DNA of 32,867 bases, taken from positions 1 through 32,867 of the forward strand of contig SXXL01000007.1 in NCBI GenBank assembly GCA_005789565.1, written 5' to 3'. The stretch is from Bacteroidota bacterium (GTDB taxonomy: Bacteria; Bacteroidota; Bacteroidia; Chitinophagales; Chitinophagaceae). The translations under genes and the position numbers were made by a program. Below, piece after piece: positions 11,787 to 22,161 of this stretch (its first letter is position 1; the number at the start of each line of letters is the position of its first letter). The notes beneath the pieces were generated by a model. The model made no database searches. It saw only the letters and a list, made by a program, of their open reading frames with translations, and was not told the origin of the DNA.

Positions 11787-11827
11787 GGGGTTGATGTGTT
11801 GGGTGGCTTCCGTTTAATGTTGTCCAG

Positions 11828-11841
11828 GTTCCACGTGGAAC
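11828..11841. promoter_or_regulatory. parS-like palindrome, copy 1
   Basis: GTTCCACGTGGAAC is a perfect 14-bp palindrome. It equals the core of the Pseudomonas-type parS site and differs from the B. subtilis core (GTTTCACGTGAAAC) by one symmetrical pair. It would be a ParB nucleation site for chromosome segregation. It lies in the ybeY-mnmG gap, with its centre 38 bp from that of copy 2. An alternative is an operator for mnmG. Confidence 0.75.
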
Positions 11842-11865
11842 ACCTAAACAGTCCCTAGAACTGCG

Positions 11866-11879
11866 GTTCCACGTGGAAC
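11866..11879. promoter_or_regulatory. parS-like palindrome, copy 2
   Basis: A second perfect copy of the 14-bp palindrome GTTCCACGTGGAAC, 93 bp upstream of the mnmG start. The flanks differ from copy 1 (G before each copy; A after copy 1, G after copy 2), so the two are conserved sites rather than a recent duplication. I saw no other full copy in the window. Confidence 0.75.
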
Positions 11880-11937
11880 GCCCCTAGTTTATTTCGCTCA
11901 ATTCGCGCTCGTTTCTAATCAAATACCTCAACTCTCT

Positions 11938-18047: not shown

Positions 18048-19487
18048 TTAATTGGAGGTTTTGTTTTCCGCTTCGCTTTCGTCTGTTTTTTTCTTGGCCC
18101 TTTTTAAAATACCCAGGTGAAGACCCGCGTGGAAATCGGCCTGTTTGGAATTACTAAGAAGGGAGGAAAGAATGCTTCCTGATCCGAAGAATAGGGGGCC
18201 CAGGCGAACGGTGGTGCCCATGGTTAATTGAGTAAGTGAATTGTAATTGATCGGGAAATATAGACCCACACCTCTTCCTTCATAGCGGGGGGTTAAGGTA
18301 AATCCAGAGTATAAGAATGGGTTTTCTGGATTCTTATTGTTGGCGAGTGAGATTTGTGTTCCGGCAGATAAGTAGAGATTTCCAAAAAGACGGGCATCTC
18401 CATATAATTGGATGGTTGCAGGTAATGAAACGGTGATGGTGGTGGCATTGTTACTGGCAGCGGGGGTGAAATTTGGGTTGGTTGATAATATTTGTTTGTA
18501 ACCATCGAACGAAACGCCTTGTAGTGTTTGTAAATCAAACCCGGGTGTAGAGGTTACCAACATATTAAACGATCCGCTTTTGCTTATATCTCGGTCGTAT
18601 TTAATTGAACCGATATCTAAAACAGAAAGGGATAGTTTGTATTTATAAGGATGCCTTTTACTGTTACCGGACCGTTTTTCATAAACCAAACCAAAATCCA
18701 ACCCAAGGCCAATACTACTTGATTGTAAGAGTTGGTTGGGAGTAAAAGAGGACACCTTTCCACTAATTCCTATTCCGATTTCTCCTCTTGATCCTTGCGC
18801 TAAATAAACATTTCCGTTCGGGCTTGGGGGTTGTATTAATGTTCCGGATAGTTGATTGATTTGAGCATAACTATTTCCGGCTCCTGCCAAGAATTTAATA
18901 GTTGCCCCAATTTTCAAAAGTTTGTCCTTTTCATCCTTGATGACTCTTCCATAAGTAAGACCATACTCCGCCCATCCATTGGTGTTAATTCGCATATTAC
19001 TGCCGGATGAAATTTGATACGGGAAGGATATTCCGTTTTTTAAATCATCAAGGACCGTTTTTGCTAGTTTTCCATCAATATCGGTCACGGAAAACTGCCC
19101 TCTGATCCTGGAGCTTAAAACAATTCCGGATTTTTTATTTAGGTTAATCAATAATGAGGGGCCAAGAATATCTAGGTTTAATTGTCCACTCACTCTACCT
19201 TCCCCACTTAAAAAATTATTTAAGGTATTGGTTGAGTTAAACGTATTAAAGGTGGTGTTGAGGGAATAAGAAGCTTTATTATTTCCAAAACCCGCGTTGA
19301 TAGAAAATAGATTTAAATCAAACAGATATCTGGAATCTGCAGCATGTGATGGATTAAAAAAAACAGATTGAACGCCTGTATAATTCCCTATCCTTGTCCC
19401 GGGAAAAGAAAAACTTTGAGCCCCTGTTTCTTTTTTAAAAAATATTGTTGAAAAGCAAAGAATTGTAAAAAAACGGTAATTAATCAT
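18048..19487 (-). CDS. DUF5723-type outer-membrane protein
   Basis: A 479-aa exported protein with a signal peptide (cleavage about GAQS). The N-terminal pattern FPGTRIGNYTGVQSVFFNPSHAA-type, then DSRYLFDLNLFSINAGF, matches the DUF5723 family: Bacteroidota proteins predicted to form an outer-membrane barrel, with many Tyr/Gly strands throughout. Function is unknown. Base composition is clearly more AT-rich than in neighbouring genes, especially in its 5' half next to the 19.5-20.0 kb gap. A near-match -7 element (AATTTTTG) lies about 4 nt before the ATG on the minus strand. It is followed by another envelope gene after 8 nt. Confidence 0.72.
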   Translation of the reverse strand: MINYRFFTILCFSTIFFKKETGAQSFSFPGTRIGNYTGVQSVFFNPSHAADSRYLFDLNLFSINAGFGNNKASYSLNTTFNTFNSTNTLNNFLSGEGRVSGQLNLDILGPSLLINLNKKSGIVLSSRIRGQFSVTDIDGKLAKTVLDDLKNGISFPYQISSGSNMRINTNGWAEYGLTYGRVIKDEKDKLLKIGATIKFLAGAGNSYAQINQLSGTLIQPPSPNGNVYLAQGSRGEIGIGISGKVSSFTPNQLLQSSSIGLGLDFGLVYEKRSGNSKRHPYKYKLSLSVLDIGSIKYDRDISKSGSFNMLVTSTPGFDLQTLQGVSFDGYKQILSTNPNFTPAASNNATTITVSLPATIQLYGDARLFGNLYLSAGTQISLANNKNPENPFLYSGFTLTPRYEGRGVGLYFPINYNSLTQLTMGTTVRLGPLFFGSGSILSSLLSNSKQADFHAGLHLGILKRAKKKTDESEAENKTSN

Positions 19488-19593
19488 GTCACAAAAATTA
19501 GATAATCGACCAGAAGTAAGAAATTTATTTTAACCAACCTCTCTATAATAAAAAAAATTATTTATTTTATTAAAACTCTATTATTACTATTCG

Positions 19594-19610
19594 TGTGGAT
19601 TTGTGGATAT
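19594..19610 (-). promoter_or_regulatory. Pair of DnaA-box-like sequences
   Basis: TGTGGATTT (19594-19602) overlaps TGTGGATAT (19602-19610) by one base. On the minus strand they read AAATCCACA (7/9) and ATATCCACA (8/9) against TTATCCACA. They sit beside the T8-A7 tract. Confidence 0.5.
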
Positions 19611-19798
19611 CCTTTTTTTTAAAAAAATAAATGAGACCAATGAGTTGATAAATAGAATATTAAATAAGTAAGAAGAAAAAGAAGCTACGGTGGAGTGGTG
19701 TTGATAAAAGAGGATTAATAAACACAATCAACCCAAACGGTTTGTTTTAAAATAAAAGCTGACAAACAAATCACAATCAAAAGAGAATAATTAAACAC

Positions 19799-19816
19799 CA
19801 ATCCACACAATCCACA
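19799..19816 (+). promoter_or_regulatory. Tandem pair of DnaA-box-like sequences
   Basis: CAATCCACA occurs twice back to back, each 7/9 to TTATCCACA with the TCCACA core intact. Their orientation is opposite to the pair at 19594-19610, giving an inverted arrangement about 200 bp apart. Confidence 0.5.
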
Positions 19817-19843
19817 AGATATTAACAGACGAAATGGGGAGAA

Positions 19844-19878
19844 ATTCCTCCTTTGTTAGCTCTCCTGGGGGGAGGAAT
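19844..19878. repeat. Inverted repeat (8-bp stem) inside the AT-rich gap
   Basis: ATTCCTCC (19844-19851) pairs with GGAGGAAT (19871-19878) around a 19-nt loop, followed by seven As. It is the only GC-rich island in the gap. It is not a good plus-strand terminator because no T run follows. The left arm continues as CCTCCTTT, identical to the anti-Shine-Dalgarno end of 16S rRNA. Confidence 0.55.
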
Positions 19879-19984
19879 AAAAAAACACCCAGAAAACAAC
19901 CAAGTTGCTGTAAATCAATAACATATAAAAACAAGGTTGTTACTATTTGCCGGGTATTTATCTCTATATTAGTCTATAAAAACC

Positions 19985-19992
19985 TATTTTTG
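19985..19992 (+). promoter_or_regulatory. -7 promoter element for the PpiD-like gene
   Basis: TATTTTTG is an exact TAnnTTTG match ending 21 nt before the ATG at 20014, giving a leader of roughly 15 nt. Confidence 0.5.
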
Positions 19993-20013
19993 CCCCCCTA
20001 AATTGTTGTCTTT

Positions 20014-22161
20014 ATGTCTGTTATACAGGATATCCGGGATAAGTATGCGAAGGTGACGGTGGTGTTGATCGCCCTGGCGTTGGTTGGATTTATTCTGACC
20101 GACTATTTCTCCGGTCAATCGCGCGGGATGAGTTCTTTACCCAACAAGATTGGTTCAGTGAATGGAAAGAGTATTTTATTCGATGAGTTTAATGGCAAGG
20201 TGTTGCAGGAGGAGGAAAATCTAAAATCTCAAGGCTATCCTCAAACGGCGGCTCTTTCCCAACAAGCCTTAGATAAGTCTTGGAATCAGGAGATCAACCG
20301 AATCATACTGGAGCAGTCTTTTAATAAGCTCGGCATTCGTGTGGGGAAGAAAGAATTGAACGATCTTTTATTTGGACCCAATCCTTCCGCGATCGCCCGG
20401 CAGTATTTAAGCAACCCTCAGGAGCCCTACAATCCTTCTGCGGTACAGCAAACGATCACGCAGATAAGAAAAAGCGGCACCACCACGCAAAAGACACAAC
20501 TCAACCAGCTTTTGGATAACATGGTGTTGGAGCGCCAGTATGAAAAATTCAACTCCTTGTTATCAAGTAGCCTGAATACGCCGCGGTGGTTGGTAGAAAA
20601 ACAAAATGCGGACAACAGCCGCCTGTCTAAAATCTCTTTTGTAAAAGAACCCTATTCCAGCATCGCTGATAGCACAATAAAGATTTCAGATACAGAGATC
20701 GCTGATTACATCAAGAAGTATCCCAAACAATTCAAACAGCAGGAGTCCCGCGCCATTGCTTATGTAACCTTTTCTGCGTCTCCCTCTTCGGCCGACAGTG
20801 CCGTTGTTCTTCAGGAGGTCAGAAATCTCAAAGACAGGCTCGCGGCGGCCGACAGCGTACCCATGTTCTTAGCCAGCGAGGGGGCCTCATATTTTAACGG
20901 CTACATCAACGCCAGCACCGTTCAAATCCCGGTTAAAGACTCCATCTTCCGCCTGCCGGTGGGGGGTGTGTTTGGCCCCTATTTGGATGGCAACAGTTAT
21001 GTGGTTGCCCGGATGATGGGATCTAAGGTCTTACCCGATTCGGTCAAGTGCCGTCACGTATTGGTATCCAATGATATTGCCGGCGGAGGATTTGCCGACA
21101 GCATCGCGTCTGCCAAGATCGATAGCGTGAAAAAAGCGATCGAGGGTGGGGCGAATTGGGCTGAGATGGTCAATAGATACAATCCCGCATCGGATGGTAG
21201 TCGCCAAAACGCCGGGGAAATGACCTTTAGTTCGACTCAAATCCAAGACGAGGGGTTTGCGCCCGAGTTTGCGAAGTTTATTTTATTTGACGGTAAGCCA
21301 GGTGAGCGCAAGGTGGTTAAAACCTCGTTCGGATATCACTACATTGAAGTTCAGTCGTTCATTAAGCCAACCGTTCACTACAAGGTGGCTTACCTGCCCC
21401 GCGAGATCGTCGCCAGTCAGGAAACCGATAATAATGCGCTCAATCAAGCCAACGAGTTTGCTGCGGAGAGTCGCGATCATAAATCCTTCGAGTCAAACTA
21501 TGAAAAGAAGTGGAAGGCAAAGGGTGCCGCGCGCAATCAAGCCGCGAACATCACCTCTTGGTCTTCCGAAATTCCCGGCATTGGTCTTTCCAGAAGTTTG
21601 GTGCGCGCCGTGTACGAAGCGGATCTGGGTGAAGTGTTGAAGCCGGAGCGGGTGGAGAATAATTATGTGGTGGTGGCCGTAACGGAGGTGCTGGAAGAGG
21701 GTACTATGTCTGTTGAGAAGGCCCGCGCGTCCGTTGAGCCCCTGTTGCGCAACCCGAAGAAGGCGGGTGTTATTCAGTCTAAGATCGGAAAGGTTAGCAC
21801 CCTGGAGGCGGCAGCAACCGCTCTGGGGGGCAAGGCCATAGAAATGGCCGACAGCCTGCGGATGGCAGGAGCCCCCAACAGCGCGCTGGGATTTGAACCC
21901 CGGGTATTGGGTGCCGCCTTTAATCAGGCCAACCAAGGAAAGGTGGTGAGCGCGGCCATTCCCGGTATGGGCGGTGTTTTTGTGGTTCGCGTCGAGCAAC
22001 AGACAACCACCCCGGTCACCGCGGGTGATGTTCAAGAGCAGCGAAAGGCCCGCACCGAGCAGGCAAAACAGGCCCTTAACAACCAGTATAGCCCAAATAA
22101 TCCGATTTCTGTCCTCCGCAATGCAGCGGAAATAAAAGATTATCGGTCTAGGCGATATTAG
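20014..22161 (+). CDS. PpiD/SurA-like membrane-anchored peptidylprolyl isomerase
   Basis: A periplasmic folding factor of 715 aa. A short cytoplasmic N-terminus and one transmembrane helix (about 14-30, VTVVLIALALVGFILTDYF) anchor it. A SurA-N/PpiD-type helical chaperone region follows (about 45-240). A parvulin (PpiC/rotamase) domain lies at about 345-447, from KCRHVLVSND to SFGYHYIEV, with NAGEMTF between. A second, divergent helical/parvulin-like region fills the rest. It resembles E. coli PpiD in topology, though parvulin details differ. It is divergent from the DUF5723 gene across the AT-rich gap and ends at a strong terminator. Confidence 0.9.
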   Translation: MSVIQDIRDKYAKVTVVLIALALVGFILTDYFSGQSRGMSSLPNKIGSVNGKSILFDEFNGKVLQEEENLKSQGYPQTAALSQQALDKSWNQEINRIILEQSFNKLGIRVGKKELNDLLFGPNPSAIARQYLSNPQEPYNPSAVQQTITQIRKSGTTTQKTQLNQLLDNMVLERQYEKFNSLLSSSLNTPRWLVEKQNADNSRLSKISFVKEPYSSIADSTIKISDTEIADYIKKYPKQFKQQESRAIAYVTFSASPSSADSAVVLQEVRNLKDRLAAADSVPMFLASEGASYFNGYINASTVQIPVKDSIFRLPVGGVFGPYLDGNSYVVARMMGSKVLPDSVKCRHVLVSNDIAGGGFADSIASAKIDSVKKAIEGGANWAEMVNRYNPASDGSRQNAGEMTFSSTQIQDEGFAPEFAKFILFDGKPGERKVVKTSFGYHYIEVQSFIKPTVHYKVAYLPREIVASQETDNNALNQANEFAAESRDHKSFESNYEKKWKAKGAARNQAANITSWSSEIPGIGLSRSLVRAVYEADLGEVLKPERVENNYVVVAVTEVLEEGTMSVEKARASVEPLLRNPKKAGVIQSKIGKVSTLEAAATALGGKAIEMADSLRMAGAPNSALGFEPRVLGAAFNQANQGKVVSAAIPGMGGVFVVRVEQQTTTPVTAGDVQEQRKARTEQAKQALNNQYSPNNPISVLRNAAEIKDYRSRRY

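What the first reader, a model, noticed from the sequence alone, without database searches (positions are those of the whole stretch)
19488..20013. Candidate chromosome origin (oriC) in the AT-rich divergent gap
The window's largest non-coding stretch is very AT-rich and sits between divergent genes. It holds six DnaA-box-like 9-mers, two at 8/9 identity (19602-19610 and 19699-19707). Two boxes at 19594-19610 face a tandem pair at 19799-19816 in opposite orientation. The parS-like pair, mnmG, ssb, dnaN and recX lie within 12 kb. Known: oriC regions combine DnaA boxes with AT-rich unwinding tracts, and parS is normally close by. Inference: this is oriC, detached from dnaA.
Basis: partly seen in the sequence, partly recalled or inferred. 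Interest (0 to 1): 0.78.

Follow-up and report, generated by a model that had tools for sequence, protein, structure and literature searches.

The report
Chromosome replication origin, away from dnaA
This AT-rich gap is very probably the place where this uncultured Chitinophagaceae-like bacterium starts copying its chromosome, and the same start signal sits in the same gene neighbourhood in most relatives examined.

Summary
The gap 19488-20013 holds two tandem DnaA-box pairs in opposite orientation (four exact ATCCACA cores; 0 of 5000 shuffles reach four). This is the DnaA-box plus DnaA-trio signature of the basal unwinding system (BUS), next to the least stable DNA of the window. The exact element occurs once in this MAG. 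It lies upstream of the same peptidyl-prolyl isomerase gene in 71 of 76 loci of relatives, usually beside nadA (61 of 63 with room), and persists where either neighbour is missing. It was not found around dnaA in 14 of 14 relatives. All 15 exact parS-core sites, in 10 of 20 genomes, lie 4-18 kb from it. GC skew is mixed: the flip falls within about 100 kb in 3 of 4 long contigs (one statistically weak) and 0.5 Mb off in one; two shorter contigs are unclear. This is a new member of a known kind: an oriC detached from dnaA. Function is inferred, not shown.

The parts
19488..20013 (.). Candidate oriC: AT-rich intergenic region between divergent genes
   Evidence: 29.7% GC, box clusters; lowest-GC stretches of the window; matches nowhere else in own genome
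19524..19577 (.). Probable DNA unwinding element beyond the trios
19578..19589 (-). DnaA-trio repeats TAG-TAA-TAA-TAG (5'-3' on the minus strand)
   Evidence: Exact match of TCCACA-N4-(TAR)4 at 19578-19599; one match each in 13 of 58 genomes, 0 in the reversed control; only match in the window with up to 1 mismatch (TYCACA form), 0 of 100 shuffles
19590..19593 (-). 4-nt spacer (CGAA) between proximal DnaA box and trios
   Evidence: N4 fixed in the pattern, kept in 71 of 76 loci; published BUS gap region averages 4 bp (PMC8287927 section 13)
19594..19602 (-). DnaA box, trio-proximal (AAATCCACA)
19602..19610 (-). DnaA box, second of the tandem pair (ATATCCACA, 8/9)
   Evidence: shares base 19602 with its neighbour
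19643..19651 (-). Weak DnaA-box-like 9-mer (TTATCAACT, 7/9)
19699..19707 (-). DnaA-box-like 9-mer (TTATCAACA, 8/9)
   Evidence: the same letters stand 313 bp before the PpiD start in the closest relative, 315 here
19799..19807 (+). Distal DnaA box (CAATCCACA)
19808..19816 (+). Distal DnaA box (CAATCCACA), tandem with the previous, opposite orientation to the proximal pair
   Evidence: in the 11-row alignment seen in the window and, fully or partly, in 3 other rows
11827..11842 (.). parS-like site (1 mismatch to TGTTCCACGTGGAACA, consensus recalled)
   Evidence: exact 14-mer core, one of two in the MAG, 7.7 kb from the box-trio element
11865..11880 (.). Second parS-like site (2 mismatches)
20014..22161 (+). 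SurA_N_2/PpiC-type peptidyl-prolyl isomerase (PpiD-like) gene, the usual neighbour of the element
   Evidence: Pfam; element upstream of it in 71 of 76 loci
18048..19487 (-). DUF5723 protein gene on the other side, where most relatives have nadA
   Evidence: Pfam; no nadA match in the window

Best explanation
The gap is the chromosomal origin oriC, detached from dnaA. Proposed mechanism: DnaA binds the tandem pair 19594-19610 and is handed to the single-stranded trios (TAG-TAA-TAA-TAG, minus strand, 19578-19589). There it forms a filament that opens the very weak AT duplex at about 19524-19577. The opposed distal pair at 19799-19816, about 206 bp away centre to centre, raises local DnaA by looping, as distal boxes are proposed to do in Bacillus subtilis. 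Helicase loading and bidirectional forks follow, and the nearby parS pair lets ParB-ParA segregate the new origin. Shown here: the sequence elements, their rarity, their conservation and the closeness of parS. Inferred from work on B. subtilis and others: DnaA binding, filament growth, looping and firing.
For: Box statistics: 0 of 5000 shuffles. The exact box-N4-trio element occurs once in the MAG and once in each of the other 12 of 58 genomes that match it, 0 in the reversed control; 16 further same-genus genomes carry it at 16-17 of 18. 71 of 76 examined PpiD loci carry it at 17 or more of 18 upstream on the same strand, against 1 of 76 at 16 or more on the other strand. In 2.15 Mb of sampled sequence 6 non-origin sites reach 16 of 18. 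It stays when an S46 peptidase gene lies between it and PpiD (27 of 27 far cases, 0 of 44 near), and when nadA, its other neighbour in 61 of 63 loci with room, is gone, as in the window and two close relatives. In a genome whose PpiD locus lacks it, the one exact copy sits between S46 and nadA on another contig. Sampled dnaA neighbourhoods lack it in 14 of 14. All 15 parS cores in 10 of 20 genomes lie 4.0-18.3 kb away. GC skew flips nearby in 3 of 4 long contigs. The least stable DNA of the window adjoins the trios. The architecture fits published BUS rules: paired boxes at most 3 bp apart, gap averaging 4 bp, at least 3 trios; in B. subtilis distal boxes worked at 132, 297 and 462 bp and in either orientation.
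Against: In the window GC skew is mostly positive left of the gap and near zero, then partly negative, to its right, the wrong way for a textbook origin, though 33 kb is too short to judge. In G058 the flip is 0.5 Mb from the element; G021 and G023 show no clean flip at it; the G060 flip is weak (231 of 2000 permutations as good). On the near-single-contig genome G183 the arm difference has the right sign but p = 0.078 from 12 small samples. Five of 76 loci lack the element at 16 of 18. In the order-wide search 3 of 198 genomes gave a match to the reversed control pattern, against 33 real ones. No box is a perfect TTATCCACA. The MAG shows no DnaA match, so its own DnaA cannot be examined. The distal opposed pair is seen only in the window and, fully or partly, in 3 of the 10 other aligned loci. 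No experiment.
Confidence: 0.93

Rival explanations
1. The conserved block is a DnaA-controlled regulatory region of a neighbouring gene (PpiD-like or nadA), not an origin.
For: It lies upstream of PpiD in 71 of 76 loci and beside nadA in 61 of 63 loci with room; a separate DnaA-box-like TTTTCCACA stands just before the PpiD start in many relatives.
Against: In 27 of 71 loci a whole S46 peptidase gene lies between element and PpiD. The window and two close relatives keep the element without nadA beside it. In one genome it is kept away from PpiD. A promoter does not predict trios at fixed N4 spacing, adjacent lowest-stability DNA, or parS nearby in each of the 10 genomes with an exact parS core.
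Confidence: 0.03
2. A non-origin DnaA-binding locus (like datA or DARS, recalled) that titrates or recharges DnaA, with the true oriC elsewhere.
For: DnaA-box clusters outside oriC exist in E. coli (recalled); the G058 skew flip is 0.5 Mb from the element.
Against: Boxes beside trios are an unwinding signature; every genome with an exact match has just one; parS sits near it; no box-trio element was found near dnaA.
Confidence: 0.03
3. The true oriC lies beside dnaA, in a part missing from this MAG.
For: No DnaA match in the MAG; [quoted passage not shown]
Against: In 14 of 14 relatives the sampled dnaA surroundings (8-14 kb, clipped by contig ends in some) show no box-trio element and at most two boxes with one mismatch or fewer per 300 bp; dnaA is on another contig or, in G060, about 1.1 Mb away.
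Confidence: 0.01

Closest known systems
Basal unwinding system (BUS) of Bacillus subtilis oriC (incC: DnaA-box 6/7, GC-rich gap, DnaA-trios)
   Same: Tandem DnaA boxes, 4-nt gap, repeated TAR trinucleotides (3'-GAT-5' type), AT-rich DNA beyond, and a distal box group that may act by looping (PMC6669920 passages; PMC8287927 section 13 and section 14 part 1)
   Different: Not beside dnaA; third base of each trio varies between A and G; the distal pair is opposed; no functional test
mnmG-associated oriC predicted in Flavobacteriaceae (Algorimicrobium, Ori-Finder 2022; PMC12843772 passages)
   Same: A Bacteroidota origin placed at mnmG rather than dnaA; here mnmG is about 6 kb from the gap
   Different: Here the element sits at the PpiD-like gene, not at mnmG itself; trios are not mentioned in the passages I saw
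E. coli oriC (between gidA/mnmG and mioC; PMC10225481 passage)
   Same: Detached from dnaA (recalled), mnmG nearby
   Different: IHF, SeqA and similar sites were not sought here; the box-trio arrangement is BUS-like

Membership tests
Bacterial oriC | Cluster of DnaA boxes above chance in an intergenic region | tested here: met
   Four exact cores, 0 of 5000 shuffles; 2 of the 3 tandem-core sites of the MAG
Bacterial oriC | AT-rich, easily melted unwinding element next to the boxes | tested here: met
   Least stable 60 bp of 32,808 positions starts at 19527
Bacterial oriC | Conserved at one chromosomal place in related species | tested here: met
   71 of 76 loci; 61 of 63 beside nadA
Bacterial oriC | GC-skew minimum at the site | tested here: inconclusive
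   Near in 3 of 4 long contigs (one weak), off in 1, unclear in 2 shorter ones; G183 p = 0.078; own MAG too fragmented
Bacterial oriC | parS sites nearby | tested here: met
   15 of 15 exact cores in 10 of 20 genomes lie 4.0-18.3 kb away; the other 10 of 20 have no exact core
Bacterial oriC | Replication starts here in cells | not testable with these tools
   No reads or cultures
BUS-type origin | DnaA box with at most 2 mismatches within 16 bp of at least 3 NAN trios | tested here: met
   Sequence at 19578-19610 against the rules in PMC8287927 section 13
BUS-type origin | DnaA unwinds it dependent on boxes and trios | not testable with these tools
   Needs purified DnaA

The most novel reading that the evidence does not exclude
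The window's family shares one fixed origin module (two boxes, exactly 4 nt, four TAR trios) that has kept its geometry while dnaA sits elsewhere and its flanking genes (nadA, S46 peptidase, PpiD) were inserted, lost or moved. In the window's clade a second, opposed box pair about 206 bp away adds a looping arm, giving a Bacteroidota origin in which unwinding direction and loop can be tested separately.
Probability: 0.5. Interest if true: 0.55.

Novelty: new member of a known kind. Interest (0 to 1): 0.45.

Why it matters
It gives a sequence-level handle on oriC for a large environmental family, which allows re-starting genomes and estimating growth rate from MAG coverage. It also points to the box-trio unwinding module, so far assayed in species of other phyla, at an origin far from dnaA in Bacteroidota. 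My library searches listed no paper whose title or abstract start describes oriC or trios for Chitinophagaceae; they cover only open-licence papers, and most listed papers were not opened. The 2070-species BUS survey (PMC8287927) does not hold the word Bacteroid in its main text, but its supplementary tables, which I could not see, and the DoriC database may already list such origins.

Tried and rejected
Rfam search of the window: no family. tRNA scan: none. Sigma-70-type promoter scan of the gap: 6 hits against 3.0 expected, not informative. The exact TCCACA-N4-(TAR)4 pattern outside the genus among 58 relatives: none. The looser TYCACA pattern in 198 order members hits 33: by my count of the rows 29 of 57 in the family and 4 of 141 outside, with 3 of 198 in the reversed control. 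Of 27 new loci from that search 19 have PpiD within 1.5 kb, 5 more have S46, and 26 of 27 have nadA beside the element; the exception, L324, is from outside the family and does not look like a box pair. GC skew from G021 and G023 gave no clean flip at the element. Third-codon-position skew gave no clearer picture. The third tandem-core site of the MAG (contig C36) lies inside open reading frames and has no exact trio element. A second DnaA search of the own MAG with PF08299 also found none.

Dropped rows: of 80 PpiD loci, 4 with under 600 bp upstream were left out. The 80 were themselves the best 80 of 90 confirmed. Misses: L137 (15 of 18, a degenerate box at the expected place, nadA present), L145, L147, L150, L162. 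Six of the 35 same-genus genomes (G002, G006, G007, G016, G022, G030) were not examined for the element beyond the exact-pattern search, which found none in them.

Full report
What is in the window. The window is the whole of contig C85 of an 86-contig, 1.875 Mb MAG, 94.5% complete. Named relatives found through the PpiD-like protein are mostly titled Chitinophagaceae or Bacteroidetes bacterium, with Terrimonas, Niabella, Lacibacter, Sediminibacterium and Puia among them. The gap 19488-20013 is 29.7% GC and lies between a DUF5723 gene (minus) and a SurA_N_2/rotamase, PpiD-like gene (plus). Four exact ATCCACA cores form two tandem pairs in opposite orientation, at 19594-19610 and 19799-19816; none of 5000 dinucleotide shuffles of the gap has four cores, or even one tandem pair. 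In the whole MAG the tandem-core pattern occurs three times, two of them here.

The missed element. On the minus strand the proximal pair reads ATATCCACA and AAATCCACA (the two 9-mers share one base), then four bases (CGAA), then TAG-TAA-TAA-TAG. Published rules for the basal unwinding system ask for a DnaA box with at most 2 mismatches, a second box at most 3 bp away, a gap averaging 4 bp and at least three NAN trios; 3'-GAT-5', that is TAG, is the commonest trio (PMC8287927, section 13 and section 14 part 1 read). The element fits these rules. The least stable 60 bp of all 32,808 positions in the window begins at 19527, on the side where the trios would guide opening.

Rarity and conservation. 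TCCACA-N4-(TAR)4 matches exactly once in each of 13 of 58 genomes searched, this one included, all in the same genus and on a contig with PpiD except in one split MAG (G033); the reversed control gives 0. I then read 20 same-genus stretches: 16 from genomes without the exact hit and 4 from genomes already hit. The best match scored 16-18 of 18 in 20 of 20. Among 80 named loci found by PpiD homology, 76 had at least 600 bp upstream; 71 of 76 carry the TYCACA form at 17 or more of 18 on the same strand (49 at 18), against 1 of 76 at 16 or more on the other strand. In 2.15 Mb of sampled sequence on both strands 10 sites reach 16 of 18: 4 are the known element and 6 are not.

Neighbours come and go. 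The element lies 422-787 bp from the PpiD start in 44 loci and 2.6-3.0 kb in 27; an S46 peptidase gene (Pfam) fills the space in 27 of 27 of the latter and 0 of 44 of the former. On its other side nadA follows within 1.5 kb in 61 of 63 loci that have room; the two without it (L110, L111) are close relatives of the window, which also lacks nadA here and has DUF5723 instead. In ACE_NR_BACT11 (L150) the PpiD locus lacks the element; the one exact copy in that genome lies between an S46 gene and nadA on another contig. So the usual order appears to be nadA, origin element, (S46), PpiD, and the element persists when any one of these is missing. In the alignment of 11 close loci the box pair and CTATTATTA form, by eye, the densest run of invariant columns outside the PpiD promoter stretch; the distal opposed pair appears in the window and, fully or partly, in three others.

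Relation to dnaA and parS. dnaA was found in 14 of 14 relatives searched, on a different contig from the element or, in G060, about 1.1 Mb away. Stretches of 8-14 kb around dnaA (some clipped by contig ends) hold no box-trio element (best 14-15 of 18) and at most two boxes with one mismatch or fewer per 300 bp. The parS core GTTCCACGTGGAAC occurs in 10 of 20 genomes tested: 15 sites, all on the same contig as the element and 4.0-18.3 kb from it by my subtraction of places. The other 10 genomes have no exact core.

GC skew. Sampled skew flips from minus to plus close to the element in G060 (flip bracketed by 1.36 and 1.41 Mb, element 1.392; 231 of 2000 permutations as good, so weak), G059 (2.065-2.100 against 2.059; 15 of 2000) and G061 (1.10-1.16 against 1.065, that is 35-95 kb off; 1 of 2000). 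In G058 it is at 1.56-1.72 Mb against 2.216 (15 of 2000). G021 and G023 show a best break elsewhere (26-46 kb against 193, 18 of 2000; 367-397 kb against 451, 151 of 2000). In all six the mean skew right of the element exceeds that on the left. On the near-single-contig genome G183, six samples a side give -0.032 and +0.029, p = 0.078. The window itself trends the other way. I count this as mild support with clear exceptions.

Mechanism. In B. subtilis a box pair guides DnaA onto trios, and distal boxes act at 132, 297 and 462 bp and in either orientation, apparently by looping (PMC6669920, passages). Here the opposed pair about 206 bp away would serve as such a distal arm. DnaA binding, filament growth and looping are inferred for this organism.

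Verdict. This is oriC with high probability: a new member of a known kind. An origin assigned to mnmG rather than dnaA is already reported in a Flavobacteriaceae genome (PMC12843772 passages). What is added is the element itself, its conservation across the family and its independence from neighbouring genes.

Noticed in passing
L010, L014, L021 and others, about 46-58 bp upstream of the PpiD start: In many relatives a TTTTCCACA-like box stands just upstream of the conserved CCTATTTTTGCC stretch before PpiD, so DnaA may also touch that promoter; the window lacks this box.
   Followed up: no
L277:3399-7113: In ACE_NR_BACT11 the one exact box-trio element lies between an S46 peptidase gene and nadA, away from PpiD: a rearrangement on one flank of the origin or a moved block.
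   Followed up: partly
window 18048-19487 and L110, L111: The window and two close relatives lack nadA beside the origin element, where 61 of 63 loci with room have it.
   Followed up: partly
window 19836-19877: GGGGAGAAATTCCTCC...GGAGGAAT inverted repeat to the right of the distal boxes, with GGGGAGAAAT shared by the closest relatives; terminator-like or a protein site.
   Followed up: no
G000 (own MAG): No match to PF00308 or PF08299 in a 94.5% complete MAG, although 14 of 14 relatives searched have PF08299; probably an assembly gap.
   Followed up: partly
genus of the window: Same-genus genomes fall into small (1.5-2.1 Mb) and large (2.6-4.6 Mb) sizes; in the small ones whose upstream DNA was read the element sits about 0.4-0.5 kb from PpiD, without room for the S46 gene.
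   Followed up: no
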